From: Liolophura sinensis
Lineage: Eukaryota; Mollusca; Polyplacophora; Chitonida; Chitonidae
Direction of reading: 5' to 3'
DNA: 64,000 nt
Assembly: GCF_032854445.1 (NCBI RefSeq)
Contig: NC_088300.1
Location: 35,569,608 to 35,633,607 of the forward strand
Made by a program: the position numbers and the translations under genes. The notes under the pieces are model-generated. The model did not search any database. It worked only from the letters and a program-made list of their open reading frames with translations, and was not told where the DNA came from. This document shows, one piece after another, positions 1 to 30,500 of this stretch. Position 1 is the first letter of the stretch; each line of letters starts with the position of its first letter.

Positions 1-2060
1 CATGAACTTTTGTTCAGGTGTGTAAGCAGAAATGTCTCAGTCTGTGTGTGTGTGTTGTAAAGAGTGATAGAGACCTCAACATGAACTTTTGTTCAGGTGT
101 GTAAGCAGAAATGTCACAATCTGTGTTTGTGTGTCTTAGAGACCTCAACATGAACTTTTGTTCAGGTGTGTAAGCAGAAATGTCTCAGTCTGTGTGTGTG
201 TGTTGTAAAGAGTGATAGAGACCTCAACATGAACTTTTGTTCAGGTGTGTAAGCAGAAATGTCACAGTCTGTGTTTGTGTGTCTTAGAGACCTCAACATG
301 AACTTTTGTGCAGGTGTGTAAGCAGAAATGTCTCAGTCTGTGTGTGTGTGTTGTAAAGAGTGGTAGAGACCTGAACATGAACTTTTGTTCAGGTGTGTAA
401 GCAGAAATGTCTCAGTCTGAGTTTGTGTGTCTTAGAGACCTCAACATGAACTTTTGTTCAGGTGTGTAAGCAGAAATGTCTCAGTCTGTGTGTGTGTGTT
501 GTAAAGCGTGATAGAGACCTCAGCATGAACTTTTGTTCAGGTGTGTAAGCAGAAATGTCTCAGTCTGAGTTTGTGTGTCTTAGAGACCTCAACATGAACT
601 TTTGTTCAGGTGTGTAAGCAGAAATGTCTCAGTCTGTGTGTGTGTGTTGTAAAGAGTGATAGAGACCTCAACATGAACTTTTGTTCAGGTGTGTAAGCAG
701 AAATGTCACAATCTGTGTTTGTGTGTCTTAGAGACCTCAACATGAACTTTTGTTCAGGTGTGTAAGCAGAAATGTCTCAGTCTGTGTGTGTGTGTTGTAA
801 AGAGTGATAGAGACCTCAACATGAACTTTTGTTCAGGTGTGTAAGCAGAAATGTCACAATCTGTGTTTGTGTGTCTTAGAGACCTCAACATGAACTTTTG
901 TTCAGGTGTGTAAGCAGAAATGTCTCAGTCTGTGTGTGTGTGTTGTAAAGAGTGATAGAGACCTCAACATGAACTTTTGTTCAGGTGTGTAAGCAGAAAT
1001 GTCTCAATCTGTGTGTGTGTGTTGTAAAGAGTGATAGAGACCTCAACATGAACTTTTGTTCAGGTGTGTAAGCAGAAATGTCTCAGTCTGAGTTTGTGTG
1101 TCTTAGAGACCTCAACATGAACTTTTGTTCAGGTGTGTAAGCAGAAATGTCTCAGTCTGTGTGTGTGTGTTGTAAAGAGTGATAGAGACCTCAACATGAA
1201 CTTTTGTTCAGGTGTGTAAGCAGAAATGTCACAATCTGTGTTTGTGTGTCTTAGAGACCTCAACATGAACTTTTGTTCAGGTGTGTAAGCAGAAATGTCT
1301 CAGTCTGTGTGTGTGTGTTGTAAAGAGTGATAGAGACCTCAACATGAACTTTTGTTCAGGTGTGTAAGCAGAAATGTCACAGTCTGTGTTTGTGTGTCTT
1401 AGAGACCTCAACATGAACTTTTGTGCAGGTGTGTAAGCAGAAATGTCTCAGTCTGTGTGTGTGTGTTGTAAAGAGTGGTAGAGACCTGAACATGAACTTT
1501 TGTTCAGGTGTGTAAGCAGAAATGTCTCAGTCTGAGTTTGTGTGTCTTAGAGACCTCAACATGAACTTTTGTTCAGGTGTGTAAGCAGAAATGTCTCAGT
1601 CTGTGTGTGTGTGTTGTAAAGAGTGATAGAGACCTCAGCATGAACTTTTGTTCAGGTGTGTAAGCAGAAATGTCTCAGTCTGAGTTTGTGTGTCTTAGAG
1701 ACCTCAACATGAACTTTTGTTCAGGTGTGTAAGCAGAAATGTCTCAGTCTGTGTGTGTGTGTTGTAAAGAGTGATAGAGACCTCAACATGAACTTTTGTT
1801 CAGGTGTGTAAGCAGAAATGTCACAATCTGTGTTTGTGTGTCTTAGAGACCTCAACATGAACTTTTGTTCAGGTGTGTAAGCAGAAATGTCTCAGTCTGT
1901 GTGTGTGTGTTGTAAAGAGTGATAGAGACCTCAACATGAACTTTTGTTCAGGTGTGTAGATAGAATGTCATAGTCTGTGTGTGTGTTAGAGAGTGATAGA
2001 GACCTCAACATGTACTGATCTTAAGTTGTGTAAACAGAAATGTTACACTCTATGTATGAG
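1..2060. repeat. Minisatellite of TY-exon end plus splice donor, 148-bp dimer
   Basis: Alternating 79- and 69-base units give a 148-base higher-order repeat. Each unit includes GACCTCAACATGAACTTTTG and TTCAG then GTGTGT, which matches the end and donor of the TY2 exon (12410-12436). The last copies near 1950-2060 are degenerate. A second-order duplication of about 1115 bases is also present. Confidence 0.93.
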
Positions 2061-2337
2061 TGTAATGTGCACTATACTGTTTCCTTTTTTATATTTCAGG
2101 AGATATAAATGGTAGATGTACAAAAAAAAAAAAACAAACAAAAATTCACATTTACTATGTGCTCACAAGTAGTTTGGAAAATTTTAAGTATATAGTTTTC
2201 AGTTTGACAATTTTCAGGCAGGTGTTTAATGTCCCACTGGTTTCAACCAAATTGGAAGCCATCAGAACAGTTGAAATCTGCATCAACTTCCACACTTGGT
2301 GTCTTGGTGCTTAAGTGATAAAACCTTGTTTTTACAG

Positions 2338-4327
2338 TGATTACAACCGTCAAAGGAGAAATAACCCTGAATCAAGATTGTTCATCAGACTTGGAAACCA
2401 TGGGAACGGCCGCGTACAACACATTTCAGCAGAATTTCACAAATCAGGTATGCTATTTTGAAATTTGCACAGTTCAAATATCATTCTTTGCCTCTTTGCA
2501 GATGTGAATGGTGTCATTTTAATTGTATTCATGTCTGTGTGTGTATCTTGTTGAATAAATTTCTCAAAATCGACTTCAAATTACTTTATGCATTCTTGTC
2601 ACTGTTGATATGACATGATGAACTTTTGAATTTGGAGTACTTAGTTTTTCTGTTTTGTCTTTGTTTTATCGATTTTGGCCTTTGGGTCTTTATATTTAGG
2701 AAAAGAATTAATTTTTTTACAGTATTTGTCAAAAACTATTTCCAATAGCTTCCAGTGTGGTTAAATACTTTGCACAAAAGTGGTAGATATCTTTCTTTAA
2801 CACTGAATATAGCTTATAGTTGTCTTTTTTAATCTTCACAAAGTTTCTGAGAACTCCTCTGCTATTTTCACATTGAAATCCATGTGAGTGTATAAATGCT
2901 GTCCGTATAAGCTACCAAGCCTCAGTCAGCGTAAACATGTATTGGGCCCAAGTGGAGCTGAATAGGGTTGGACTGAATTACTTCCCTTGGCCCCAAAATT
3001 AAGGGTGTGTTTTATTAAGTAAGCTGTGGTTAGTTGGGACCTCAGAAAATGTGTAATGACAAGTTTCGGTGTTCAAGGGGCATAATTGATAACCTGCCTT
3101 TTGAGACAGATGTTAATTTTATAAACTTATTTGGAAAGAACAAGATAAATGTTATGAATATTTTAATTCCATTTGAAGGTAATTTTAAAATACTGACTCT
3201 AATTAAATACAACAGAGAGCTTTGGTACACTATTAAGCTGAAAATATCGACTTCATTCAAGACCTTTTGACATTTATGGGACTCTTAAAGGCTGATATCG
3301 TGTTTTTTACATTCGATTGCCATGAAAATATATGTAACGATCGTGACATAACCTGCATACTGTAGATGAGGTCCCATTTCTTGTAGTTTCACTCCCCAAA
3401 GACTAATCTCGCATAACAAGGGAGGTAATTCATGGCAAGCCTATTGACTTCAGATGCTATATGTCAGGAGTCCTTTTCTTTTCCCTTTTGTCATTATTAT
3501 TATTATATTTCTTACAGCTAGAATGATGGCTTTAAAATTCAGCTGCAGTAGAATTTGGATTATGCAAATAGAGTGAAGATATTTTAGTCATGATGCAGTT
3601 CATGTCTCAATCCGTTTGTTTTGTCTTGATTGTCTTTCAGATTAACATACTTCTCTTAGACAGCCCTGTACAGCAGATCTTCAACGGTATTCGGATAACA
3701 GGGGTTCGGTAAGAGAACAATTAAACTGAAATCAAAAAGTGGCTAATTATGAGATGGTTTTCAACAAAATGTGACAAAGTTAGGAGGTTACCATGCAATC
3801 ATCAAAGTGTACACAATGGGAAACTTGTAAAACTCCTTCCCGTCTGTATCAAGACAGTCCAAAGCTGTGAACTTATTTGCTCTTTCCTTTATTATGTCAC
3901 AATTATCTGTGTGTACTCATGAACCATGTACAAAGTACCCACGCACTGAAATGTCACAGAGCGTTCCACTATCATTTGGACCTTCTGTATAGCTCGTTCT
4001 CGAGTTTCCCATTGACATGCGATGTAGGTTCACATGCCCGGGTAGATGATGTCTTAATTCTTTATGTGATAGATCAACATGAGAAAGACTGTAGCTATAT
4101 AAATCACTAATTCTGTGTTTGTTATCACCACAGGTGTGGCAGTGTTGTTGTGTCGTTTGACTTGGATTTGAGGAACACTAAGATCATAGGTTCTGACCCT
4201 GGAATTCCAATGTACGATACAAACACACGTATGTGGTCAGTCACCATGGATCTACTGAAGACCACCCTGATGCGAAAATTAGAGCAGTCCACCATCAGCG
4301 CAGACCCAGCATCACTCCGACTACAAG
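2338..4327 (+). CDS. SEA module 1 (three exons)
   Basis: Exons 2338-2447, 3641-3708 and 4134-4327, phases 1-0, 0-2 and 2-1. The middle exon encodes the amphipathic helix ending in GIRITGVR. The third opens with CGSVVVSFDLDL, where G-S-V-V-V matches the SEA self-cleavage site known from MUC1-type SEA domains. The tail motif ISADPASLRL corresponds to the last SEA strand. SEA domains stabilise or cleave juxtamembrane ectodomains. The first exon follows a minisatellite (1-2060) that carries copies of a TY-1 exon end, implying a TY-1 domain just upstream. Its nearest relative in the window is SEA2 at 13553-14742, which has the same exon sizes (110, 68, 194). Confidence 0.85.
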
Positions 4328-10300: not shown

Positions 10301-12840
10301 CATGCACAAATATCCATCTTCCATGTCAGAACGGCGGCCAGTGTGTGAACGACATGAAAGGCCTTCGCTGCCTCTGTCAGCATGGATTTGGGGGTCCCTA
10401 CTGTGAGAGACCTAGTGAGTCTGGAGAGAATATATGTTACTATTGCTTATTTATTTGACCTGTCCAGTAGTGTAGTGATGACCTTAAAGATGACTCTAGT
10501 TCATATACAGTGATGATAATTGACCCCACCCACACTGTAAAAAACTTTTAGTTTGCAATCCAAATGAGGCCAAAACTGATCTATGAAATTGGCTCAAAAG
10601 TAGGTCAATTTTTAAAATAATTAAAATCATTTAAATCACTCTCTATCTGGTGCCCCTTGACATCACGATTATAAATCTGCAAGAATTGTTTTTTGTACTT
10701 TGTATTGTTTTCATTTTTAAAACCAGCAAAAATTTTACAAAACCATCCTACATATATGTAAATAAAACATGAGATCTTCCTGCTAGACTGCATGAAACAA
10801 TTGACTGCAGTTTACCATGGGAACGGTAACAATGTATTCTTTCTGTCTTCTGCTCTCCAGCACCAACTTCACAACTATGTAGTCTTTCTGTCTTTTGTCC
10901 TGGGGTATTAGTAGAAGATCAAAGCCACTTCATCTCCATTCTAGTCTTCAGTACTTGGCCAATTGTAAATGATGTTTGGCAGTGTAGGGCTTAAATCCAG
11001 TACATTCCTTTACAATTTTCTTGTTTTTTTTTATCACTATCATGAACTTTATTGACATCAAGCTACCAGAAGTAGTAAAAATCTAGTTGCGTGGACTGCA
11101 GCAACACTGTTGGATAACAGCTTAAATTAAGCAATGAAACTTTTTTTTTGTTTTTTTTTCACTGTTGTGTGGCACAGTCCATAAGCATTGTACATCTGTT
11201 GTGTGTTAACACATTTTTCCTTGTTTGGCCCAGTCCTGAAGCTTGGCGTGTGTCCCGTGAACATCACCAAACTAACTCTGGAGCTAGGACAGCGCTGTGC
11301 CCATGAGTGTACCTCAGACTGGCAGTGCCCCGGGGCTCAGAAGTGCTGTATGGATGGATGTATGGGGAGGTGTACTGACCCCACCATGACTGGTAAGGTC
11401 ATTCAAAGCAGCAAGGGCTACTGCACAAGGGTATTTGTTTCTGCACATTTATGTGCTTCTGTTACCCTATTTTATTGCCTTAGAGAACTAAGGAACTTAG
11501 GTCATACCCTTTTAGTCACTATCCCTTCAGGATTGAAGAAGTAATTCAAACCAAGCTCAAAACTCACATATTATTGCCATGTTATGGAATGGCATTGTCT
11601 ACCTGTTTTTGCTCTGTGTGTGTCTGTCTCTGTCTGTCTGTTTGTCTAGGTCTTTGTCTGTCTGTCTATAACTTTTTGATGTTACCACTATATCTGTAGA
11701 ACCACACAGCAAAAACAAATTGAATATGAGTCTTATTGCTGTAAACTTCATGGTTTAAGTCCCTTTACTTCTTATATTGTTTATTTCATGGCTTTTACAT
11801 ATGAGGGCTTGATTCAATTACAACCTAGGCCATCAAGATTCAGATGATGGCCCCAAGCTACTCTGGTTTTGTTTAGCTGTACATATGAATGCTCTGCCAT
11901 CGTTGCAATGTTCTTGAAATATTAAGTCAACTTGGACTTTTGAATGTTCCTAAAATTTACAAATACTTGCCATTTTATGTGACTTTATTTTTTGTTATTG
12001 TTGTTTTCTTGGTAAGATTTTTCACCCTGCAAACAAGAGACAGCCTTAAGACAGCAGTCCTTGAACGTTATCAACAGTCTGGCAACAAATTCCAGAGTTA
12101 CAGTTAGAGATGTGGTGATCAATTCTGAGAACAACACTCATGTGTGGTCCCTCATTGCCAGCATAGCAGGATATTGGTCCCTGGAGCCCTACTACCAAGG
12201 GAACACGCCTCTTCCTTTTAGCTTGCTAAGGAACATGTTACTAAATGACTTTACAAACATCCCATACATCAGCTGCCAAGACAATGGTCAGTACGAGCCG
12301 CGTCAGTGTGTAGGCACATATGACCAGCGCAATACCACTAGTTGCTTCTGCGTCAACCAGCTGGGATGGGAATTGATCACCACTCGTGTTTTCTCAGAGA
12401 ATGGTGACCTCAACATCAACTGCTCTTCAGGTGTGTGAACAGAAATGTCACAATCTGTGTGCCTGTGTGTGTGTGTGTGTGTGTGTTGGAGAGGGATGAA
12501 GACCTCAACATCAACTGTTCTTCAGGTGTGTGAACAGAAATGTCACAATCTGTGTGTCTGTGTGTGTGTGTGTGTGTGTGTGTTGGAGAGGGATGAAGAC
12601 CTCAACATCAACTGTTCTTCAGGTGAGTGAACAGAAATGTCACAATCTGTGTGCCTGTGTGTGTGTGTGTGTGTTGGAGAGGGATGAAGACCTCAACATC
12701 AACTGTTCTTCAGGTGTGTGAACAGAAATGTCACAATCTGTGTGCCTGTGTGTGTGTGTGTCTGTGTGTGTGTGTGTGTTGGAGAGGGATGAAGACCTCA
12801 ACATCAACTGTTCTTCAGGTGTGTGAACAGAAATCTGTCA

Positions 12841-12901
<61 letters not shown>

Positions 12902-15900
12902 GGAGAGGGATGAAGACCTCAACATCAACTGTTCTTCAGGTGTGTTAAGAGAAATCTCTCAGTCTGTGTGTCTGTGTGTGTGTGTGTGTTGGAGAGGGAT
13001 GAAGACCTCAACATCAACTGTTCTTCAGGTGTGTGAACAGAAATCTATCAGTCTGTGTGTCTGTGTGTGTGTGTGTTAGAGAGGGATGAAGACCTCAACA
13101 TCAAGTGTTTGTCAGGTGTGTGAACAGAAATGTGTGTTTGAGAGAGAGAGACATTGGTGGAGACCTCAACATGAACTGTTCTTAAGGTGTGTAAATAGAA
13201 ATGTCACAGTCAATCTGTGTGTGTGTGAGAGAGAGAGAAAGTGTTGGAGACCTCAACATGAACTGTTGTTAAGGTGTGTAAACAAAAATGTCACAGTCAA
13301 TCTGTGTGTGTGAGAGAGAGAAAGTGGTGGAGACATCAAAATGAACTGTTCTTAAGGTGTGTGTACAGAAATGTCAGTATGTGTGTGCAAGATACAGTCT
13401 TCTTTTATACATGTGTATAGATAGTTATTTGCATTTTAGCTATTTTAAACTGAAAACAATAGTTAAATTAAATTTGAACAAAATAATGTCCAGTTTTGCC
13501 TCTTTGATCAAAGAAAAAATGTCTTCATGTTTTGTACAATTATTTTTGACAGAGATTACAACTCTCAAAGGAGAAATAACTCTGAATCAAGACTGTTCCT
13601 CAAACTTAACAGATGTGGGAACGCCAGCCTACAACGCATTTCAGCTGACATTCACCTATGAGGTTTGGTGTTTTTAAAACTGCTCCATTCAAATAATTTT
13701 TGTCTTTTTTATTCATTCATCAATATACTAATGTTATACAATGACATTTGGAAAAACATTGGTGGGAAGTGAAGCTTCATGGAACTTACTTTATCCCAAC
13801 TCCAGTTATATATTAATATTGAAGACAAATGGATTTATTTATTTGATTGGTGTTTTAAAATTTGGTTTAAACAAGTCGAGTGAAGATATTTTAACCTATC
13901 ATATAACCATGACACATTTAATATCTCAACCCACTTTGTTATCTTCATTGTCTTTCAGATGAACACACTTCTCTTAGATAGCACCATTCGGCAGTTGTTC
14001 AACGGAATCCGGGTAACAGGTGTTCGGTAAGAGAGCAACTAAGTGAAATCAAAAAGTTGCTAAGTATTAAAAGGTTTTAGTGAATTGTGGCCAGGCAAAG
14101 AAGAATTGACAATCTAAAATCAAGTATTTAAAGTGTACGTAAATCTACTATGGTCTTTTGTCGGACCGGCTGTCCACACATCTGGCCTTAATCTTTCAGG
14201 TGTTAACACTATATCTACAGAACTGCTTTACTTGAGGTACTTCGTTGGCTGCAATGTACCTCTAACCCAGTACCCTTTTGAAAATACATGGAACTACAAG
14301 TCAAGAACTAAAACAGAGTTATGCTCCTTTTTGTGATATGTTACTTTTTTATGTTTACAGTACCACTTCTGTACACTGTTTCAAATTATTTTTCAAAAAA
14401 TTCAAATTTCATGGATGACACCAATAAATTGTGACTGATGTCACATACTATCAGTAATATTGTGAACCAGAGTGAAATCAGTGAGAATAACTGTCCATGC
14501 CATTGTAGCTATATAAATCACTAATTTCTGTGTTTGTTATCACCACAGGTGTGGCAGTGTTGTTGTCTCGTTTGACTTGGATTTGATAAACACAGAGATT
14601 GTCAGTTCTAGTTTTGGAATTCCAATATACAATCCAAACACACGTGTGTGGTCAGTAACCATGGACATACTGCACACCACCCTGATGGGGCTTTTCAATA
14701 GATCCAGCATAAATGCAGACCCAACCTCACTGAGTCTAAAAGGTAATTTGCATATCTTTGCCCCAACGACAGAGGAGGGGAGGTGGTGTACAACAATCTA
14801 TCTGTTGTCTACACTGTGTCTGAACATCGTGGACAGACTTCTCAAATCAAGTCCTGGTAATGGTTGAACTTGTGTGGCTTAGGATTTAGTCACGTTCTTG
14901 TGTGCATGTTCTTGATTGACAGCTGGTAAAGCTCTAGGTACATTTATATATAGACCTGTTGTCTAGAGTGGAAGTTAGTTTCCTTCATTGTAATGCTGGC
15001 TACTGTTGTATAAGTAAAATATTCTTGTGTATAAGGTAAACCACCAATCAAATAAATAAATAAATAAATGGGGGTAGTGGTTTGCCTAGCATCTGGGCAT
15101 GTAAACAGATTAAGCACTGATAAGGCACTGCTTGATTTCTTCCCACCATGCATCACTCCATTGAACAGTAATACTGGTGGAATTGAAAAACTGCAGAAAA
15201 CTACCAAAAAGTCAGCAGATTTGATCATAAAGTGAGGAAGCACTTTTCATACAAAATGCAAGTTTGTCTGTGTATGGAGTCTACAAGTAATACTCTATTT
15301 CTGTACATGTACATTATGCAATATTGTATAAAAAAAGCCTGTTTTAATTCATTTGGAACATTGGAATCCAGAGAACTGGGGGGAAAAAAATTATATGATA
15401 TTAAAATTTAATGACTTTAAATGTGAAAGTAAGCACCTTTGGATTGAAAGTTGTTTCACATGCATAGAATGGTGTCAGAAAATTGAAAAACATTGCATTA
15501 GGATATTGTAAAGGTGGTAATGGGTAGGACCCCTTGAAAGTTTATCTGACTTATTGAAAACGGAAAACAGAACCGAAACCTGATTAAACATTAATTAATA
15601 TGGCATAGTCTGCCTGAAATATGACATCGGCTAGAAATACCATCGGGTGTTGTTTTGTTTAAAATAAGTGTAAACATAACTTTCATGTGATATATATTTC
15701 ATGTGATGTGATATTTATTGAATGTCATACAGATGTGGATTGCAGGATCAATTTTGGTCTTGAATTTGTGGATTTCTCCAGCTCCCATTGGAAAATATTT
15801 AAACCTGTCAACTGGGTTTGTAGGGCTCTCTGCTCACTCTGACTGATCTTCCTCCAAGATGTTCCAGAAATCTATGTACATTACATATGAAAAGCTTTTG

Positions 15901-18900
15901 TTATACAATAACATGTTAAGGGTTGATGGTAATAGACTATGTACTCAGTCCCCTCCACCATTGAATTGTCTACCATCACATAAATGAAAAGTTTTTCAAT
16001 ATGGTGTGAAATAACAGTGAAAAACAACAATGAAATTAATATAAAATAAATATACCTGTTGCTTTCAGAGTGCCCACCCCTGACCTGTGAATGTCTTACC
16101 TCACAATACGGAATTGACAGGATTGGCTGCAGAACATGTCCATGTGTGAATGCTTGTGAGGTAGGTGTACTGAATATTTAGTAATGTGAGGTAGGTGTAC
16201 TGATTGATAATGTGAGGTACGCGTAGGTGTATTGAATGGTAATGTGAGGTACATGTAGGTGTACTGAATGGTAATGTGAGGTAAATGTACTGAATGACAG
16301 TGTGAGGCAGGTGCATAGAATTGTAATGAGAGGTAGGTGCACCGAATGGTAATGTAGGGTAGGTGTACTGAGTGGTCATATTGGGCAGGTGCATCGAGTG
16401 GTAATATCAAGCAGGTGGACCGAGTGGGCATGTCGGGCAGGTGCACCGAGTGGTCATGTCAGGTTGGTGCACCGAGTGGTCATGTTGGGCAGGTGCACCG
16501 AGTGGTCATGCCAGGTTGGTGCAGCGAGAGGTCATGTCGGGCAGATGCACCGAGTGGTACCGGTAAGTGTACTGAGTGGTAACGTGATGTAGGTATATTA
16601 AATGGCAATGTGAGGCTTGGTACACTAACTGGTAATTTGAAGTAGGTATATCGAATGTTCATGTGAGGTAGGTGTGCTGAATGGTAATGTAGGATTTACC
16701 TACTGAATGGTAATGTGGGGTTTATATACTGAATGGTAATGTGGGGTTTATATACTGAATGGTAATGTGGGATTTATATACTGAATGGTAATGTGGGGTT
16801 TATATACTGAATGGTAATGTGGGGTTTATATACTGAATGGTAATGTGTGGTTTATATACTTAATGGTAATGTACGATTTATATACTGAATGGTAATGTGG
16901 GGTTTATATACTGAATGGTAATGTGTGGTTTATATACTGAATGGTAATGTGTGGTTTATGTAATAAATGGTAAGGTGAGGATTGAGGAAGGCATCTGAAT
17001 GGCCCAGTGGGATAAGTGTACATGTACTAAATAGTAATGTCAGGTACACATGTACATGTAGGTACACTGAAAGGTATTGCAACATATGTGTATGTCCCAT
17101 GTTGAAAGATATAATACCAGATATTTAATTATCCAGTCTGTGTTAATAGGTAGGATACACATCAAAATTTTCACCTACCATATGACCGACCGAGCAGAGC
17201 AGTTAAAGTTGCTTCAGATTGAACGTGCTGTAAGGTTCTTTATTGTGTTTAGAATGTTAAATACACATTTTAGCTGTGACTAGTCTAGAACTTTATCTTG
17301 GTTCGTTTGGTTTATATTTTGTGTGTGTAAATTATTTATGAGATAGTATGTATTATGGTAGTAATGCATGCTGACATCAAAACACTTATAACACTTTTTC
17401 CCCAGAATTTTAACTGTGAACAAGGGTACCATTGTGAGGTGGGTTCAACTGGAGAAGCAGTATGTGCACGTAAGTCAAACATGTTTGTGAAGCCTTGTCA
17501 AATATACAAATTTCCTCTCTTCAGTAAATAGAATATATCTGATTTTCATTGTCAGGAGTTTATGAATTTAAGATGTGTCTTTAGATTACTCAAAGGAAAA
17601 AAAGCAATAATCACATCTGAATAGAAAATATTTGTGTTTTGGATAATTAAGGTCAATATTTTAATAGATTCTCAAGCAAACAAATATCACAAATAAGATA
17701 AAAAATATCAAATATTGTTTTTCAACAAAAACGTTTTTCAAGTGACCCATTTTGATTGATTCTGAATAACTCATCCACCTTGTAGGGTCACTTCAGAGTT
17801 TTTGTGTGAAGTGAAATGCATTTTTCATCAGAATAACTTGTTATAATCAGAGGCCTTCATGCACTTCTGAATGTGTATTTTTACACTCCAGACTTCAGGT
17901 GTAACACAGCAATACTGTCGTTTTCATAATAATTGTGTAACAGGGTCATATGTAAGCGATATCTATCTAAGCAGTATCTATCTCCAGACTGGAAGTAATT
18001 TCCCTCTATTATTTATATAAAGGTTAAATGCTAATGGCAATCTATGCCTTTATTTTTGTTCACCATAGAAGAGTTTCACTTCCCATTGTCAAATTGGCTC
18101 TTGGTTATTTCAAACCTCATCAACAAAGCCTGATTTTTCATGTCAGGCCGGACAAAAAGCAGTGGAGCTCTATTATCTTACCTTTTTGTTTGATCCACCG
18201 GCTTTTTTCAACACTCAGAACTGCCTGGTAGTCCTTAATTTGATAGAGCTAAACATAAGAGTCACATATTTTCCCATACGCTTCAGTGAGGATCAGTTCT
18301 GCTTTCTACGTCAGTTCGTCATTAGATTAGTTGAGCCACATTTGTGCAGCTAATACCTTATAATCCTTCAATTGCACTGCACCACAATAACCAGACCCCT
18401 TTTAAACCCCTGCGTTCAAGTTTTGTTCAGTATATTTACATATGCTTGAATGATAATACCCAGTGCCAATTGTACTCCATGATATGGTTCATAAGTTGAC
18501 AGTGTTGATGGTTTTGAATATCCTGGATGGTTTTACTTGTTAAAACCAACTGGTATTAGCCAGCCGTTTTAGCGCTGTAAGATGTCATTTGTGTGTTATC
18601 CAAAACTGATTATATATTGTTTTTACAGCTGATGGTCTGCAGTGTTTGGAGGGTGCGATAAAGTGTATTGAGAAAGGTGGGACCAAAGAGATTTGCGTTC
18701 TTAGGGAATTCATTTGCGATGAGGATGATGATTGTGAGGATGGACGTGATGAGGCCAACTGTACAGTTACAAGTAAGATCATAGTAGACTATGGCTATAG
18801 TTCTACTTGTGGACCATATGTATAAATATGTATATATGTATATGTTTATAGTACACTCTATGGCCGTATCATTACTTGTGGTACGACAGTGAGGCAGATC

Positions 18901-21538
18901 ATAATACACTATGTAGCTGTACCTCTACTTGTTGTACAACAATGAAGCAGATCATAATACACTATGTAGCTGTACCTCTACTTGTTGTACAACAATGAGG
19001 CAGATCATAATACACTATGTAGCTGTACCTCTACTTGTTGTACAACAATGAAGCAGATCATAATACACTATGTAGCTGTACCTCTACTTGTTGTACAACA
19101 ATGAGGCAGATCATAATACACTATGTAGCTGTACCTCTACTTGTTGTACAACAATGAAGCAGATCATAATACACTATGTAGCTGTACCTCTACTTGTTGT
19201 ACAACAATGAGGCAGATCATAATACACTATGTAGCTGTACCTCTACTTGTTGTACAACAATGAAGCAGATCATAATACACTATGTAGCTGTACCTCTACT
19301 TGTTGTACAACAATGAGGCAGATCATAATACACTATGTAGCTGTACCTCTACTTGTGGTACAACAATGAAGCAGATCATAATACAATATGTAGCTGTACC
19401 TCTACTTGTGGTACAACAATGAGGCAGATCATAATACACTATGTAGCTGTGCCTCTACTTGTTGTACAACAATGAAGCAGATCATAATACAATATGTAGC
19501 TGTACCTCTACTTGTTGTACAACAATGAAGCAGATCATAATACAATATGTAGCTGTACCTCTACTTGTTGTACAACAATGAAGCAGATCATAATACACTA
19601 TGTAGCTGTACCTCTACTTGTTGTACAACAATGAAGCAGATCATAATACAATATGTAGCTGTACCTCTACTTGTGGTACAACAATGAATCAGATCATAAA
19701 TCACAATAGTCATACCCTAATACAATATGTGGCTGTACCGCTACTTATGGCACAACATGCACAAATACCTCTGCCTGTGGTACAGCCAATGTAAACTGAC
19801 CTCTGCTTGTTGTATAGCTTAAGGCTCACACAGCTAGCGGTGTCTGAACAGGTGAGGAAGTTCTTGGAGTCAAGAGAGTTGAATTTGGTACAAACCTGTT
19901 ACTGCCATGGCAGCGATATCAGTCTGATGTTTAGTCCAGAATTTGTTTTTGGTACAAAATTCTGGAATGTAGTGTTTAACGACAGACAGCTCTGTGATGG
20001 GTGAGGAGAGGAGCGGGGATGTCCATCTAGTCTTTTTGAGTTGGTTTGATGACAAATTCTTTAATCTAGTGTTTGATTTTATTTATTTAGTTATTTATTT
20101 CATTGGTGCTTTACGCTGTACTCAAGAATTTTTCACTTATACGACGGCGGCCAGCATTATGGTGGGTGGAAAACGGGCACAGCCCGGGGGAAACCCACGA
20201 CCAGTTGCAATGTAGTGTTTGAAGTACAGATCTTGATAAACATTTGAGGTCAACGTCTTCTCATGTCCTTGGTAAATGTGTGGAACTCCAAGACCTGACA
20301 TTGTGCAGCATCTTGCATACGTTGTTTCACAATTGATATATGGTGTTGCAGCACTCATTGTGACATACCCTTATAGTAATTATGTTTCATTGCAATGAAT
20401 TCACACCTCAAGCATGCACATGATTTAAATAAAATTCAAACATTTCGCCCACAAAAGTGCAGTTTTAGAGGCAATTAAATGTCACAAAATATTAATGTCA
20501 CAAATTATTTTTTTTTTTGTGCTGAAACATACAATTGTCTTGTAAAATATCATCCTATGTTCCAAGCAAACCTCAAAACACCTTTCCAAAATCAGTAGAA
20601 CTGTCAGAATCAGGAAAAATGGGTGAGTTAGTCATGGACGAAATTTTGTGGTGATTTAGGGTATTCAGTTTGACAGATTTAATGCATTGGTAGTTTTGTT
20701 TTTTATCAGGCTGCCCATAAGTATAATTTATTGTTGGTGAAATAGTGGAGTAATGTACCGGTTACATGCTGTACCTGTTATTAGATGTTTGCCCTGGGGG
20801 AAGTAGGAGGTGTGTCGATGGAGAGAAGTGTGTTCTGACAAACCGATGGTGTGATGGCAGTGTGGACTGTGGAGATGGCAGTGATGAGCAAGGATGTCCT
20901 TCAACAACAAAATCACTATCACCACCGACAACAACAAAGTCACAATCACCATTAACAACAAAGTCACTATCACCACCGACAACAACAAAGTCACCATCAC
21001 CGCCGACATCAACAAAGTCACCATCACCACCAACATCAACAAAGTCACCATCACCACCAACATCAACAAAGTCACCATCACCACCGACAACCAAGTCACC
21101 ATCACCACCGACATCAACAAAGTCAACATCACCACCGACAACCAAGTCACCATCACCACCAACAACAAAGTCACCAACACCGTCAACAACAAGAAAAGAA
21201 ACAACAACAGCAGGTGAGATCAATGTTAATGGATGGACAATAGAATAGAGAGTATTGTCAAAAGGTCATATTCATGGATTTAATTTAATGTGTCATACAA
21301 TGACAAACATTCTAATGAGGGACTGGTAGCTGTACAAGCACAGCCCTACGCAAAATAATGTTGTATCAAAGAAAAGAATGAACGACCACACTACTTGAAC
21401 CGAGTGGACTGAGGTGGACATATCTCCTCATTCAGTGATATGGGTAATAGGTATTCAATAGTTAAGCACCTTATGTACATTAATACAGGAACTGCTTTGG
21501 TGGCCTAATACTGGAATCGGCTTGCTTGTCTGTCCGGC

Positions 21539-21577
<39 letters not shown>

Positions 21578-24500
21578 ACACTCTATTTGCATCTCCTCCT
21601 AAACACCAGCGTCAATTTCGATGAAACTTACTATACACCTAGCCTATCATTGAACTTGTGCTTAAGTTTAATAATTACATAATTAAAACATAATTAATTC
21701 TCATAATTACCCTTATTTAGGACTTTGTGTGATAGTGCTTTTCCATGTACTCAGATTCTGTCCATGCTACTTATTCTTTAAGCACTGAACCTATTTCTAT
21801 GAAACTTAGCATACAGCTGCTGTATCATCTAAACTTGTGCATGCTTAAGTTTAATTACAATTTGTTAATTGTGCAGTAATGAATTTTCATTTACACTGTA
21901 TTGTCTTCTGACTCCTACATTTCTCCTTTCAAACTGGCTGTACCAGCAGTGCAATCAATGCACACATGGAATGGCCCATGGAACGATCTGTATGAAGCCA
22001 AACTAAGCAACATGAAGTCTTTTAACATTTCTTTTAAGGTTTTCTCAATTTTCTTTCTTTTATTTTTGGAAATGTTGAGAGATGGAAGGAGGTATTTCGG
22101 ACCTCCGAATTCTAGTTTCATTCCATTTGTCCATGGAGCTTTGGAGGCTACATAATAAGCAGTTAACAGTGTAGTCTTACTTGTCTTTTGCTATTATGAC
22201 ATGTGGTATGTCCCACATGGGGAAGCTCATCATAAACTTGCCTCCACAGGCACTCCAGTTTCTTAGACAGACTCAACTTACTGCCATCATAATAAGGAAA
22301 ATTTCTTCATTATGCTGATAATAACGATGAAGTAAATAAATGTACCTGTTGGTTTCAGCAAGGACGTGTCCGCCTCTGTCCTGTCTTTGTCCTATCTCAG
22401 GCCACAGGACTGACAGCAATGGCTGCAGAATATGTCCATGTGTGAATGCTTGTGAGGTAGGTGTACTGAATATTCAGTAATGTGAAGTAGGTGTACTGAA
22501 TGGTAATGTGAGGTACATGTATGTGTACTTAATGGTAATGAGAGGTAGATATAGGTGTACTATATGGTAGTGTGTGGTACATATAGGTGTACTGAGTGGT
22601 AGTGAATGAATGAATGAATGAATGAATATGGCTTGAATGGTGAACGCCACATCTGCAATATCTCATGGTAATGTGAGGTACATACAGGTGTACTGAATGA
22701 TAATGTGAGGTACATGTATGTGTACTGAATGGTAATTTGAGGTACACGTAAGTGTACTGTATGGTGATATGAGGTACATGTATGTGTACTGAATGGTAAT
22801 GTGAGGTACACGTAAGTGTTTTGTATGGTAATGCAAGGAAAGGTTGCAGAATTACAATGTAAGGAAATGGCAGGTACACCATGTAGGTATACTGAATGCT
22901 GTTGTAAGGAAGGTGTACTGAATGGTAATGTGAGGTACATGTATGTGTACTTAATGGTAATGAGAGGTAGATATAGGTGTACTATATGGTAGTGTGTGGT
23001 ACATATAGGTGTACTGAGTGGTAGTGAATGAATGAATGAATGAATGAATATGGCTTGAATGGTGAACGCCACATCTGCAATATCTCATGGTAATGTGAGG
23101 TACATACAGGTGTACTGAATGATAATGTGAGGTACATGTATGTGTACTGAATGGTAATGAGAGGTAGATATAGGTGTACTATATGGTAGTGTGTGGTACA
23201 TATAGGTGTACTGAGTGGTAGTGAATGAATGAATGAATGAATGAATATGGCTTGAATGGTGAACGCCACATCTGCACTATCTCATGGTAATGTGAGGTAC
23301 ATACAGGTGTACTGAATGGTAATGTGAGGTACATGTATGTGTACTGAATGGTAATTTGAGGTACACGTAAGTGTACTGTATGGTGATATGAGGTACATGT
23401 ATGTGTACTGAATGGTAATGTGAGGTACACGTAAGTGTTTTGTATGGTAATGCAAGGAAAGGTTGCAGAATTACAATGTAAGGAAATGGCAGGTACACCA
23501 TGTAGGTATACTGAATGCTGTTGTAAGGAAGGTGTACTATATGGTATTGTGAGGAAGGTGTACTATATGGTATTGTGAGGAAGGTGTACTATATGGTATT
23601 TTGAGGCTTTTGTCCTGGTTGTAGATTGAGGTAGATGTACCTATTGGCAGTGCCAGCTAGCTATGCTGACTGGTATTGTCAGGTGTGTGCAATAAATTGT
23701 AATGTCACGTATGGTAAATGACCTGAAGTTTCGCCCTGGGACTCAGAAAGTTTTGGCTGTTACTGACTGAGCTCCGTGGGAGAGCAACAAGCACATGTTT
23801 CACTGAGCAGGTACTATAGTCTGTGCTCCTACTGCCAACAGTTCATGTTTTCCTCAGTTTTAATCGTAATGATTTTAGTACATGCACTTGGCAACAGGTT
23901 ATTTCGGGAATAATGGGATTTTGGGAGAAAATTAAGCGTGACAATCCAGTACCTTTAGGCATGTGGAGTGTCATGTCATGTACACCTACACATGTGCATT
24001 GGCACCGCTCATTAAGCTGCAGCCAAACATTTCTTGATCATTCTGGCGTAATTTGAAAGACTGTCAACTTCGCAAACATGAATACTTAATTTACTTTATA
24101 TTTAGAAAACATTTTGTGTGTAAAACCAGTGACAGTGTTGTGTGAACTCCTAATGTGATAACAGCTCAAACAAATTGTGTCTCCCGATATGCCGGACTCA
24201 CACGTAGTGTTACCGAAAAGGGGTGAAAGTAAATCGTGGTAATTTTCAAGGGGCTAATCTCTTTCTGCTGTGATCTTTCTGCCAACACAGATCGTGTGAA
24301 AGTAAACGAGAGTAACTCAAGTGCAAAACTTGTTTGCCGAAGGTGTACTGAATGCTAATGTTAGGTATCTGTACTGAATGGTAATGTCGGGTAACTGCAC
24401 TGAATGGTAATGTCAGGTAACTGTACTGAAGGATAATGTCCGGTAGCTGTACTGAATGGTAATGTCAGGTAGCTGCGCTGAATGATACTGTCAGGCAGCT

Positions 24501-27500
24501 GCACTGAATGGTAATGTCAGGTAGTTGTAATGAATGGTAATGTCAGGTAGCTGTACTGAATGGTAATGTGAGGTAGCTGCACTGAATGGTAATGTCAGGT
24601 AGTTGTAATGAATGGTAATGTCAGGTAGCTGTACTGAATGGTAATGTCAGGTAGCTGCACTGAGTGGTAATGTCAGGTAGATGTAATGAATTGGTAATGT
24701 CAAGTACATGTAGGTGTACTGAAGGGCAATGTCAGGTAACTGTACTGAATTGTAATGTCAGGTAGCTGTGCTGAATGGTAATGTCAGGTAGCTGTACTGA
24801 ATGGTAATGTCAGGTAGTTGTAATGAATGGTAATGTCAGGTAGCTGTACTGAATGGTAATGTCAGGTAGCTGTACTGAATGGTAATGTCAGGTAGTTGTA
24901 ATGAATGGTAATGTGAGGTAGCTATACTGAATGGTAATGTCAGGTAGCTGCACTGAATGGTAATGTCAGGTAGTTGTAATGAATGGTAATGTGAGGTAGC
25001 TATACTGAATGGTAATGTCAGGTAGCTGTACTGAATGGTAATGTCAGGTAGCTGTACTGAATGGTAATGTCAGGTAGCTGTACTGAATGGTAATGTCAGG
25101 TAGTTGTAATGAATGGTAATGTCAGGTAGTTGTAGTGAATGGTAATGTTAGGTAGCTGCACTGAATGGTAATGTCGGGTAACTGCACTGAATGGTAATGT
25201 CAGGTAGCTGTACTGAATGGTAATGTCAGGTAGCTGTACTGAATGCTAATGTTAGGTAGCTGTACTGAATGGTAATGTCAGGTAGCTGTACTGAATGGTA
25301 ATGTCAGGTAGTTGTAATGAATGGTAATGTCAGGTAGCTGTACTGAATGGTAAGGTCATGTAGGTTTATTTACTTATTTATTTATTTGATTGGTGTTTTA
25401 CGCCATACTCAAGAATATTTCACTTATATGACACGGCAAGCATCATGGTGGAAGAAAACCAGACAGCCCGTAGGAATCCCATGACCATCTGCAGGCTGCT
25501 GGCAGACTTTCCCATGTACGGCAGGAGAGGGAGCCAGCATGAACTGAACTTGAACTTACAGCGACCGCAGTTGTGAGAGGCTCTTGGGTCAATGCGCTGG
25601 ACTAGCATGCTAACCACAGAGGCCACAAAGGCCCCTGTCATATTGGTGAACTGAATGGTAATGTCAGGTAGCTGTACTGAATGTGATATCTGTTTTAATT
25701 AAGTAGATAGTTTGTAATTGTGCCTGAAATGTTTATTACCTGTTTTTTCCTTTCATGAGTGCAGACATTTTTTTGAAATTTCATTCGTGTGAAAAACAAT
25801 GTATTTACAATAATATATATAATCGATTTGGGATCAGTCGTGGGCTTTTGTCAGCTGTTATCCAACAAGTACTACATTTTTCTCCTAGAATGTTGAGTGT
25901 GCCAAAGATTACCATTGTGAGGTCCGTGTGGGGTCTGGAGAAGCAGTATGTACGCGTAAGTCAATCACATTACAGTGTTCTTCTCAGTTACACACATTTT
26001 TTTTTTTTACTTTTGATCATTTAATAACAATGCACCTGATTTTCCATTCTAATTTCTTCCATAGCAGTGGGGAAATAATGAACTTTATCTAGTCCTTATG
26101 TATTTATGTATTTTAGCGCACCTGCACAAAGTCAAGAGAGGCATTATGAGGGGATGGGGGGAATTTTAGTGTTGATGTTGGGGCCTGGTTAAGCCTTTGT
26201 TTAAGCTCCTGTATATTGGGTTCTCATGCATTAATTGAAAGTTAAGCTTTTTTTTTTTTACAGCTAAAGATTTTTTTTAAAAATATTGATACCCTCTTTA
26301 CGAAGTTAAGGGTGAAGGGGTGGGGGTTATACTGGATTCATCCTATCTGTCTGTCTGTAGACACGATTTAGTCCATTTCATCTCTTCTCAAAGTAGGGTG
26401 ATTTTGATGAAACCATACATCTTGTCTATCATCTGAACCTGTGCATGCTTTAGTTTAATGGCAACTGGGTAAATATTTTCATGATTAGCCCCATTTAAGA
26501 CCTTGCGTATGATGCTTCTCCATGTATTCAGATTTTGTCCATGCAACTTATTCCTCAAGTACTGAACCTATTTCCATGCAACTTATTCCTCAAGTACTGA
26601 AGCTATTTCCATGAAACTATTCCTCAAGCACTGAACCTATTTCCATGAAACTATTCCTCAAGCACTGAACCTATTTCCATGAAACTATTCCTCAAGTACT
26701 GAACCTATTTCCATGAAACTATTCCTCAAGCACTGAACCTATTTCCATGAAACTATTCCTCAAGGACTGAACCTATTTCCATGAAACTATTCCTCAAGTA
26801 CTGAACCTATTTCCATGAAACTATTCCTCAAGTACTGAACCTATTTCCATGAAACTATTCCTCAAGTACTGAACCTATTTCCATGAAACTATTCCTCAAG
26901 TACTGAACCTATTTCCATGAAACTATTCCTCTAGTACTGAACCTATTTCCATGAAACTATTCCTCAAGTACTGAACCTATTTCCATGAAACTATTCCTCA
27001 AGCACTGAACCTATTTCCATGAAACTTAGCATACATCTGCCTGTATTATCTAAACTTGTGTATGCTTAAGTTTAATTATAATCGGGTAATTATTTCTAGA
27101 ATTATTCCCAACTAGGTACTTAGTGCAGTAATGAATTTTCATGCTGGACATTGATTTTATCCATGCAAGTCCTGCTAAAGTATTAGACGAATTTACCTTA
27201 AACTTTGTGGATATCTTTTTATATCATCTAAAACATCTAAATGGTTAATAATAATGACAGTCTGATGATTATTTTATTTTCATTGTTACCCTCATTCAGG
27301 CACATGGCCAAATAATGACACTGTTCATGCACACAGCTAAATGAGACAGCTGAAGACACATTTCATTATCGTGGTGTTCTACTTTAACATAGATATTATC
27401 TGAGAATAATATCTCACATGTGTACGACAATGTCATTCTACTTTATTTTGGTTTAGAGGTCAGGATTTGAATTATGTATTACCTGACTGGAACATTATGC

Positions 27501-30500
27501 AGTTTTATGAACTGCTTAATCAGGGGAGCTACCGGTGTTCTATGAATGCCTTGATGCATTTAGTTTTACATACATTGAAGCAAATAATCTTCAAGTACAA
27601 GTATAATGGATTTGAATATTAACAGTCGGTTGTGGGTTTCCCCCTGGACTCTGCCCGGTTTCCACTCACCACAATGGTGACCGCTGTGGTAAAAGTGAAA
27701 TATTCTTGAGTACGGCGTAAAACACCAGTCAAATAAATAAATAAATGTTAACAGTCAGGTATCATTCAGTTCTTGTAGTGGTGTAAGATGTATTTTATGT
27801 GTATCAGTAAACTGATCCCATGTTACAGCTGATGGTCTGCAGTGTTTGGAGGGTGCGATAAAGTGTATTGAGAAAGGTGGGACCAAAGAAATTTGCGTTC
27901 TTAGGGAATTCATTTGCGATGAGGATGATGATTGTGAGGATGGACGTGATGAGGCCAACTGTACAGTTACAAGTAAGATCATAGTAGGCTATGGCTATAT
28001 TTCTACTTGTGGACCATATGTATAAATATTTATGTATGTATATGTTTATAGTACACTCTATGGCCATACCACTACTTGTGGTACAACAGTGAGGCAGATC
28101 ATAATAGTAGACTATGGCTGTAGCTTTACTTGTGGTGTTCCTCTCCGGCCGTACGTGGAAAGGTCTGCCAGCAACCTGCGAATGGTCCTGGGTTTCCTCC
28201 GGGCTCTGCCTGGTTTCCTCCCACCACAATGCTGGCTCACTCTATCTAGCACTGGCTCTAGCTGGACTTGTGGTACAGCCTCAAGTTTACAGTACTGTTG
28301 AGGTCAAGGCATAGTGTGAATGGAAGACGGGCTGGAAACTTCATATAAGTGGAGTGATTCACATGACCTCCTCTCAAGTCGTTGAATCTCGGAAATTGAA
28401 TAGGATATGTAAGGTGTTGCCATGCAACTGTGCCATTGACATCCTTCTCAGGTCACTAGACTGAGAGATGTCAAAGTCTTTAATGTACTGTATGAAGTAC
28501 AAAGCTGGATTAACTTTGGCAATCAATATATTTTTATTTCATTAAAGAGAAATTCAGTTTGATAGCTTTAGTGCATATGTGTTTATATGCAGTATAATTG
28601 GCTGTAAAATAAAATGTACATTTCATATTAGATGTTTGCCCTGGGGGAAGTAGGAGGTGTGTGGATGGAGAGAAGTGTGTTCTGACAAACCGATGGTGTG
28701 ATGGCAGTGTGGACTGTGGAGATGGCAGTGATGAGCAAGGATGTCCTTCAACAACAAAATCACCATCACCACCGACAACAACAAAGTCACCATCACCACC
28801 GACAACAACAAAGTCACAATCACCACCGACAACAACAAAGTCATCATCACCACCAACATCAACAAAGTCACCATCACCACCGACAACAAAGTCACCATCA
28901 CCACCGACATCAACAAAGTCACCATCACCACCAACAACAACAAAGTCATCATCACCACTAACATCAACAAAGTCACCAACACCATCAACAACAAGAAAAG
29001 AAACAACAACAGCAGGTGAGATCAATGTTAACTTCCAGAAAAAAACACTAAATTGACAAAATACCAGTTACTCCATATTATGATCAAAATATACTTTTTT
29101 TTATGAATGCCGAATCTGAACTTTGTTTACGGGTGTATATTCTGTACATGCATGACAGGAAGTTGTTGATGTGGTAGAATTTTCTTGGTCATTTCTGCAT
29201 CTCTTCTTATAGGAAATAATGATGGAATGCTTTCTTTGCATGCTTCATTGTAGAGACACCAGTCGTTGTTCAGGGTGTAGTGGTCCTAAACGAAACTTGG
29301 TCAGATGATCTTTACAACACTTCCTCACCCGAATACCAACAACTAGAGGTCATGATTATATCGCAGGTACAGTGACATTTGGTTTTTGTGGGTCTATGGT
29401 GATAGCCAGATGCTTCACAAGATTTGCTCTACAGGTATGGCTTGCAAGTCTATCCATGATCTACACAGGTAACCTACTAGCCCACTTAGTCTAATGGGTT
29501 GTCTGTTGTTCACTAGTTAGGTGATTGTGGAGCAACTGTCAGTTGACCGTTATGTGTTATTATCTCCAAACAACAACTGTCAGTTGACTGTTATGTGTTA
29601 CTATCTCCAAACAACAACTGTCAGTTGACTTTTATTTGTTACTATCTCCAAACAACAACTGTCAGTTGACTGGTATGTGTTACTATCTCCAAACAACAAC
29701 TGTCAGTTGACTGTTATGTGTTACTATCTCCAAACAACAACTGTCAGTTGACTTTTATTTGTTACTATCTCCAAACAACAACTGTCAGTTGACTGGTATG
29801 TGTTACTATCTCCAAACAACAACTGTCAGTTGACTTTTATTTGTTACTATCTCCAAACAACAACTGTCAGTTGACTGTTATGTGTTACTATCTCCAAACA
29901 ACAACTGTCAGTTGACTTTTATTTGTTACTATCTCCAAACAACAACTGTCAGTTGACTGTTATGTGTTACTATCTCCAAACAACAACTGTCAGTTGACTG
30001 TTATGTGTTACTATCTCCAAACAACAACTGTCAGTTGACTGTTACTATCTCTAAACAAGAGCTTCAGTGGATTCTCACTCGAATTTAAGGGAATGATTGT
30101 GGTAGTATTGTTCTAGTACCTGCTGTAATAGTGGTTGTGGTAAACTAGTAGCATGCTATACCTGCAATTAGCCGGGCTGGTACAGTAGCGGAGGCTGACT
30201 CACCCTTGCTGGTAGTATTCCAGTGATGTCAGTATTTGACAAGAGAATTTAAAGGTAAACTACAAAGATTTTTAACTTGAAACTGAAAGTCATTGGAGAA
30301 AATACATAGCTAACACATTTGTCTATTGTTTTGTGTATGTTATTTTTACCTCATGTTTGGCTAACTATAGATAAACCACACAGTCTGTAATTTGCCCAAA
30401 AACTCCATGGTTTGTTCCCTTTGGATTTGGAAATGTAATTACATCTGGGTGTTTTTCATTAAACTCTGTAAATTCTTCTTAATCATATTGTGGCATATTG

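What the first reader, a model, noticed from the sequence alone, without database searches (positions are those of the whole stretch)
12405..13385. Minisatellite seeded by an exon end plus its 5' splice site (TY family)
The array starts at the TY2 donor, and each unit repeats the last coding bases and the GTGTGT donor. The array at 1-2060 has the same core, so it probably follows a TY exon outside the window. Each array therefore carries ten to twenty-five decoy donors. Using any later donor would read a TGA right after GGT GTG, so mis-splicing should give truncated transcripts.
Basis: partly seen in the sequence, partly recalled or inferred. Interest (0 to 1): 0.8.

Follow-up and report, generated by a model that had tools for sequence, protein, structure and literature searches.

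The report
Minisatellites grown from exon-intron junctions
In this animal gene, the end of an exon together with its splice donor was copied head to tail into the intron, leaving ten to about forty spare donor sites, and similar accidents are seen at several other exons, which gives natural tests of how cells pick the right splice site.

Summary
Array 12406-13376 begins 25 nt inside the TY exon; its ten units repeat the exon tail plus the 5' splice site (24 of 25 identical; 0 of 3000 anchored shuffles). The array at 1-2043 does follow a paralogous TY exon upstream of the window; fetched, it has 42 units. A unit tree pairs first with first and last with last units of the two arrays, so one seeding preceded the exon-block duplication and each array then expanded alone. 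Every later GT donor (10 of 10 in B, 39 of 39 in A) would read a stop.

The phenomenon is wider than the finding. Two antistasin-type exons of the same gene carry 26-bp arrays built from exon tail plus donor. Among 79 exon ORFs of four domain families in this genome, one Kunitz and one WAP exon (and a second WAP exon beside it) show the same anatomy. Donor junctions sit in arrays about as often as random GT sites nearby (4 of 79; 3.6 expected); acceptor junctions do not (0 of 79; 4.1 expected, P about 0.01, weaker under stricter controls). Human ABCA7 and IFI6 are known relatives. I read these arrays as tolerated because the exon-attached donor keeps winning. No RNA data were available.

The parts
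12017..12430 (+). Thyroglobulin type-1 exon, copy B (414 nt, enters and leaves in phase 1), source of the repeat unit
   Evidence: Pfam Thyroglobulin_1 E 1.2e-8; boundaries and open frame
12406..13376 (+). Array B: exon end plus ten units, spacing 71-121 bp; each unit = exon tail (25 nt, perhaps 35) + start of intron with donor + TG-rich or GA-rich stretch
   Evidence: TRF, unit list, spacing
12431..12436 (+). True donor of copy B, CAG|GTGTGT, U1 duplex -7.4 kcal/mol
12623..12628 (+). Unit donor CAG|GTGAGT, stronger (-11.9) than the true donor
12436..12438 (+). In-frame TGA met by any transcript that uses a later donor
   Evidence: 10 of 10 decoy products stop within 3 codons of the exon end
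13553..13662 (+). Next exon after array B (110 nt), acceptor at 13553
1..2043 (+). Array A, 3' part (full array from -1184, window-relative); 69/79-bp units mostly alternating as a 148-bp dimer; 42 units in all
2338..2447 (+). Next exon after array A, paralogous to 13553-13662
16069..16160 (+). Antistasin-type exon 1 (CPCVNACE end) whose tail seeds a second, unrelated array; no Pfam match of its own, named by its paralogue
16155..16980 (+). 26-bp array starting at donor 16161; unit = exon last 14 nt (one 2-nt gap, one mismatch) + intron first 10 nt
22359..22456 (+). Antistasin-type exon 2, paralogue of the exon at 16069 (Pfam Antistasin E 8.7e-5)
22457..23452 (+). Array of the same unit (26/32 bp) starting at donor 22457; relatives at 23521-23606 and 24344-25363 further down

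Best explanation
A short tandem duplication once spanned the junction between the TY exon and its intron, copying at least the last 25 nt of the exon (possibly 35) with the first several tens of nt of the intron. The extra copy lay inside the intron, so the protein did not change while the exon-attached donor stayed in use. The copies then behaved as an ordinary minisatellite: a small array was carried along when the exon block was duplicated, and each daughter array expanded from a different part (B from exon-like units, A from a distal unit type). The same accident happened independently at other exons of this genome. Such arrays survive at donors because added copies fall into the intron and the first donor wins; at acceptors added copies would be spliced into the message and are rarely kept. 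Shown here: anatomy, homology, shared ancestry of the two arrays, recurrence, stops after decoys. Inferred: that the first donor is used almost always, that selection explains the acceptor deficit, and the order of events.
For: Exon tail/unit homology far above shuffles and control exons. Exon tails of A and B read the same amino acids (GDLNINCSS) with two synonymous differences in the 24-nt tail, while unit copies carry amino-acid-changing differences and some stops, so the exon is the source. Unit tree: exon ends A00+B00 (100/98), A01+B07 (94/94), A42+B08+B09 (88/77). Second family in the same gene: the whole 26-nt unit is accounted for by 14 nt of exon and 10 nt of intron; 8 of 3000 anchored shuffles. 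Other genes: Kunitz exon L059, 65-bp unit with 47 nt of exon; WAP exons in L068, about 106-bp and 52-bp units, the latter 19 copies of 45 nt exon + GTAAGTG. Donor junctions with at least two further copies 4 of 79 against 3.6 expected, acceptors 0 of 79 against 4.1 expected, zero in about 1 % of resamplings. ABCA7 precedent for low use of unit donors.
Against: No RNA evidence of any kind. In copy B the true donor is no stronger than six unit donors and weaker than one, so strength alone does not explain first-donor use, and in human IFI6 downstream units are used. All ten B units carry AG|GT and most are moderate acceptor-like sites, so stepwise splicing cannot be excluded. The acceptor deficit is weak: without the two TY loci zero is reached in 1.6 % of resamplings, without all four array loci in 3.2 %; counting a single further copy it is 3 of 79 against 6.2 expected (8.6 %). 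Exon borders were guessed from open frames. The antistasin exon homology alone is short (14 nt; unanchored 116 of 2000 shuffles).
Confidence: 0.75

Rival explanations
1. Ratchet or dual-specific splicing: each unit's CTGTTCTTCAG|GTGTGT serves as acceptor and donor, so the intron is removed unit by unit. Splicing the true donor to a unit acceptor restores the same exon-donor junction, which would make the array silent in mRNA.
For: AG|GT in 10 of 10 B units and 38 of 42 A units; in B 9 of 10 restore the same six intron bases. Common unit acceptor scores (3.1 in B, 5.1 in A) lie in the top 4-7 % of 1381 AG sites and above the four or five weakest of 14 natural acceptors. AGGT dual-specific sites act in tandem repeats of human UBC (PMC10809524).
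Against: In A 0 of 38 restore the same donor (true GTATGT, units GTGTGT). The antistasin-type units mostly lack acceptor character (median scores -3.7, -0.7, 2.8 in three arrays), so it cannot be the general reason why such arrays are tolerated. Mini-introns of 68-121 nt are short.
Confidence: 0.12
2. Poison-splicing regulation: unit donors are used at a regulated rate to make truncated, decayed transcripts, and array length tunes output of the gene.
For: 10 of 10 (B) and 39 of 39 (A) decoy products stop within three codons; the strongest donor of array B is a decoy; 29 of 30 plus-strand (TG)6+ runs in 83 kb lie in the two arrays, possible sites for UG-binding splicing repressors such as TDP-43 (recalled; only a listing with abstract starts seen).
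Against: A stop soon after a donor is expected for any intron; expansion differs between copies and units drift; in ABCA7 unit retention was 2 +/- 1 % and independent of length.
Confidence: 0.08
3. The array came first and the exon end was captured from it (exonisation).
For: Exon end and units are nearly identical in B.
Against: The exon tail encodes the end of the TY domain (its last cysteine, by eye), reads the same amino acids in A and B, and none of the other 12 TY loci has an array flush with the exon. Kunitz and WAP cases likewise repeat cysteine-bearing domain ends.
Confidence: 0.03

Closest known systems
Human ABCA7 intron 18 VNTR (PMC5954066; passages, section 21)
   Same: 25-bp unit whose first GT is the exon 18 donor; one-unit retention through a unit donor gives a frameshift and premature stop; length varies
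   Different: [quoted passage not shown] Here at least 25 nt (TY), 45 nt (WAP) or 47 nt (Kunitz) of exon are repeated, and such arrays recur in several genes
Human IFI6 (6-16) minisatellite, Turri 1995 (cited passage in PMC4526556; the paper itself is not held)
   Same: Minisatellite repeat units serve as splice donors downstream of an exon
   Different: There two downstream units are used and give different isoforms; here every later TY donor reads a stop, and use is untested
UBC tandem dual-specific AGGT sites (PMC10809524; abstract, passages, section 8)
   Same: Tandem units with AGGT that could act as acceptor and donor
   Different: UBC units are coding and delimit monomers; here units lie in an intron and usage is untested
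Intron gain by tandem duplication of AGGT or of an intron-exon junction (PMC4974935 passages)
   Same: Tandem duplication spanning a splice junction, with exon sequence turned into intron
   Different: The potato case spans the acceptor side and makes a new intron; here the donor side of an intron, repeated many times, no new intron shown

Membership tests
Donor-anchored VNTR (ABCA7/IFI6 type) | Array begins at the exon's splice donor | tested here: met
Donor-anchored VNTR (ABCA7/IFI6 type) | Units carry donor-like sequences | tested here: met
   38 of 42 (A) and 7 of 10 (B) units at least as strong as the true B donor; 12.1 and 7.5 per kb against 0.74-1.19 per kb in six control stretches
Donor-anchored VNTR (ABCA7/IFI6 type) | Length varies among individuals | not testable with these tools
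   one assembly only
Donor-anchored VNTR (ABCA7/IFI6 type) | Unit donors used in RNA | not testable with these tools
   no RNA data
Recursive splicing / dual-specific splice sites | AG|GT preceded by acceptor signals | tested here: inconclusive
   common units in the top 4-7 % of AG sites, below most natural acceptors (small matrix from 14 acceptors)
Recursive splicing / dual-specific splice sites | Site used as both acceptor and donor | not testable with these tools
   no RNA data
Intron gain by tandem duplication | A new intron at the duplicated junction | not tested
   the intron exists beside both TY copies; no relative without it was available
Minisatellite | Head-to-tail units of about 10-100 bp, many copies | tested here: met
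   (B units 71-121 bp, A units mostly 69 and 79 bp)

The most novel reading that the evidence does not exclude
Splice donors, unlike acceptors, are open ground for minisatellites: tandem duplications spanning an exon's 3' end and its donor are tolerated at close to the neutral rate, so donor-seeded arrays form a recurrent class (here TY, antistasin-type, Kunitz and two WAP exons: five seedings, seven introns), whereas acceptor-spanning arrays are purged. Each such array is a natural series of competing, near-identical 5' splice sites from which the cell chooses the first.
Probability: 0.4. Interest if true: 0.75.

Novelty: new variant of a known kind. Interest (0 to 1): 0.57.

Why it matters
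Human ABCA7 shows that a donor-anchored repeat goes with altered splicing and disease risk, and IFI6 that repeat units can serve as donors. If donor-seeded arrays recur across exons of one genome while acceptor-seeded ones are absent, then tolerance of the 5' splice site to duplication may be a general rule, and natural arrays with 2 to 42 competing donors become test objects for how the first donor is chosen.

Tried and rejected
Recursive splicing as the general answer was set aside because antistasin-type units mostly lack acceptor character and array A units do not restore the true donor. Micro-exon reading: 24-nt segments between an AG and the unit donor are open in most units, and of the two array A subtypes scored one has a fair acceptor stretch before it (10.7) and the other not (-4.5), B units at most 2.4; left as a curiosity. 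Hot-spot reading (donors attract arrays) was rejected: donors are hit no more than random GT sites. Extension of exon homology to 35 nt rests on one unit (A01): 2 of 1000 shuffles; B10 gave 225 of 1000, so it is only likely. High donor density alone is not diagnostic: array 24344-25363 has 27.5 strong donors per kb, though it belongs to the antistasin family of units. Nine other window arrays, whose flanks I read by eye without a full gene model, did not look flush with an exon end.

Donor/acceptor count: single further copies were seen at donors of L020 and L027 and at acceptors of L020, L025 and L083; they fall below the two-copy threshold. L020, L025 and L027 belong to a 410-bp repeat that I take for tandem duplication of whole exons; the L083 site lies 640 nt inside its open frame, so it is probably no acceptor. 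The 79 include the two discovery exons; without them donors are 2 of 77 against 2.7 expected. WAP exon 2 is an extra exon seen in L068, not one of the 79. Several candidate GT or AG sites were tried per exon against one random site per locus, which favours finding donor and acceptor hits alike. Loci fetched: TY 14 of 14 matches, antistasin 20 of 37, Kunitz 30 of 48, WAP 24 of 56; distinct ORFs 14, 20, 30 and 15.

Papers: ten searches listed no survey of donor-spanning minisatellites; the library lacks most subscription papers, so this does not show absence. PMC2572611 and PMC2915984 showed only a citation of Turri 1995 in their reference lists for the terms sought.
Full report
Where it lies. 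The window is G000:C6:35569608-35633607 of a 609-Mb assembly, intron-rich and animal-like. The organism was not identified. The stretch holds exons with thyroglobulin type-1 (TY), LDL-receptor A, antistasin, WAP and Kunitz domains, so the gene is probably a multi-domain protease-inhibitor-like protein; I did not build a full gene model.

The observation. The TY exon 12017-12430 ends CTCAACATCAACTGCTCTTCAG and its intron begins GTGTGTGAACAG. TRF finds an array at 12406-13376. Ten copies of the exon tail plus donor follow, spaced 71-121 bp. The exon tail and the first unit match at 24 of 25 positions; no shuffle of 1000, and against a unit consensus with the boundary fixed none of 3000, reaches that score. 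Twelve control exon tails of the same gene score at most 11 against 45 (which mends two control borders that were one base off), and the best of 242 AGGT sites elsewhere in the window scores 14. In the unit nearest exon A the match runs on, across a 4-nt gap, to 35 nt of exon; that extra part alone is reached by 2 of 1000 shuffles.

The other array. It does: the exon ends at window coordinate -1161 with donor CAG|GTATGT, and 42 units follow. A protein search of the genome matched only these two exons and their two next exons (such counts are lower bounds). Both TY exons are open: 411 and 414 nt, joining in frame to the next exon.

One seeding, two expansions. A tree of all 54 unit rows (27 distinct) pairs the two exon ends (100/98), pairs unit A01 with B07 (94/94), and groups the last unit of A with B08 and B09 (88/77). 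Mean identity is 89 % within A, 84 % within B and 77 % between. So a small array with at least three positions existed before the exon block was duplicated; the block duplication is visible as matching pieces from about -12 kb to 2.5 kb against 6.5 to 13.7 kb. B then expanded exon-like units B01-B06, A expanded units A03-A41. Only 4 of 24 inner branches pass the program's strict threshold, one of them the exon-end pair. Array A has a 148-bp dimer and, above it, a 1,115-bp repeat that is 97-100 % identical in 100-base steps over about 1.5 kb.

Decoy donors. By U1 pairing energy (U1 sequence recalled) the true donors score -8.0 (A) and -7.4 (B); 38 of 42 A units score -7.4, and in B six score -7.4, three -5.9 and one, at 12623, -11.9. 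Sites at least as strong as the true B donor occur at 12.1 per kb in A and 7.5 per kb in B, against 0.74-1.19 per kb in six control stretches. Four of nine natural donors of the gene are no stronger than -7.4. Any later GT donor brings a stop within three codons: 10 of 10 in B, 39 of 39 in A. That consequence follows from the sequence; that such transcripts are made does not.

A second family in the same gene. The exon 16069-16160 ends TGAATGCTTGTGAG|GTAGGTGTAC, and the 26-bp array that starts there repeats TGAATGGTAATGTGAG|GTAGGTGTAC: the last 14 nt of the exon, with one 2-nt gap and one mismatch, plus the first 10 nt of the intron account for the whole unit. With the boundary fixed, 8 of 3000 shuffles reach the score, and one of 242 AGGT sites, which is a stray copy of the unit itself. 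Without the fixed boundary the exon part alone is not remarkable (116 of 2000). A paralogous exon at 22359-22456, which Pfam calls antistasin (E 8.7e-5; the first exon has no match), has the same arrangement, and more of the same unit lies further down.

Other genes. I fetched 88 loci around TY, antistasin, Kunitz and WAP matches in this genome; 79 are distinct exon ORFs. Besides TY-A and TY-B, a Kunitz exon on C1 (L059) is followed by an array of 65-bp units made of the last 47 nt of the exon and about 18 nt of intron, with six further donor-like copies (the exact donor may lie two bases on), and a WAP exon on C13 (L068) by about three copies of about 106 bp that start at least 34 nt inside the exon. 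The next WAP exon of that gene, in the same locus, has 19 copies of a 52-bp unit, 45 nt of exon end plus GTAAGTG, the first being the exon end itself; the next unit's donor is as strong as the true one, and the 12 units printed all keep GTAAGTG. For the first WAP exon, read-through does not meet a stop at once, so the immediate stop is not a feature of the class.

Donor against acceptor. A junction was scored as lying in an array if its 24-mer recurs at least twice within 700 bases on the intron side with at most five mismatches. Donors: 4 of 79; one random GT per locus gives 3.6 on average. Acceptors: 0 of 79; one random AG per locus gives 4.1, and zero in 0.8 to 1.0 % of 5000 resamplings. 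Leaving out the two TY loci the last figure is 1.6 %, leaving out all four array loci 3.2 %; and if a single further copy counts, acceptors are 3 of 79 against 6.2 expected (8.6 %). So donors are not hot spots, they behave like neutral sequence, while acceptors seem to be kept clear. The numbers are small, and exon borders were taken from open frames near the domain match.

How it most likely works. Duplications across a donor place the extra copies inside the intron. If the donor attached to the exon goes on being used, the protein is unchanged and the copies drift and multiply as a minisatellite. Duplications across an acceptor would instead offer an earlier acceptor and add sequence to the message. 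Why the first donor should win over equal or better copies is open: exon definition with a 414-nt exon, first transcription, or repression by proteins that bind the UG-rich stretches are candidates (29 of 30 plus-strand runs of six or more TG in 83 kb lie in the two arrays). These are inferences.

What is known. In human ABCA7 a 25-bp VNTR begins with the donor of exon 18; retention of one unit was 2 +/- 1 %, independent of length, while skipping of the next exon rose with length (PMC5954066; passages, section 21). In IFI6 two downstream repeat units act as donors, which speaks against a first-donor rule without exceptions (passage in PMC4526556; the original paper is not held). Tandem AGGT sites that act as both donor and acceptor are described for UBC (PMC10809524; abstract, passages and section 8), and junction-spanning tandem duplication on the acceptor side for a potato gene (PMC4974935 passages). 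The TY array is therefore a member of a known but thinly described kind. What seems new is the long exon portion, the shared descent of two arrays through an exon-block duplication, the recurrence in one genome, and the possible donor/acceptor asymmetry.

Noticed in passing
window 1-2043 and upstream: Array A shows three repeat levels: 69/79-bp units, a 148-bp dimer, and a 1,115-bp repeat 97-100 % identical over about 1.5 kb.
   Followed up: partly
array A units such as the one at window coordinate -529: One of the two alternating unit subtypes of array A has a fair acceptor-like stretch (TTTGTGTGTCTTAG) 24-26 nt before its donor, giving open micro-exon-like segments.
   Followed up: partly
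window 20902-21196 and 28749-28998: Coding repeats (STTKSPSPPT type) directly after LDL-receptor A domains in two similar exons.
   Followed up: no
L020, L025, L027 (C2:16261-16266 kb): Antistasin exons lie in a 410-bp tandem repeat that seems to hold whole exons.
   Followed up: no
window 24344-25363: The same 26-bp unit as the donor-seeded antistasin-type arrays, 39 copies, 1.9 kb downstream of donor 22457, with more sites at -7.4 or better (28) than the arrays flush with the exons (7 and 1).
   Followed up: partly
L068 (reverse complement) 1608-3132 and L069: Two successive WAP exons of one C13 gene each seeded their own array, 106-bp and 52-bp units.
   Followed up: yes
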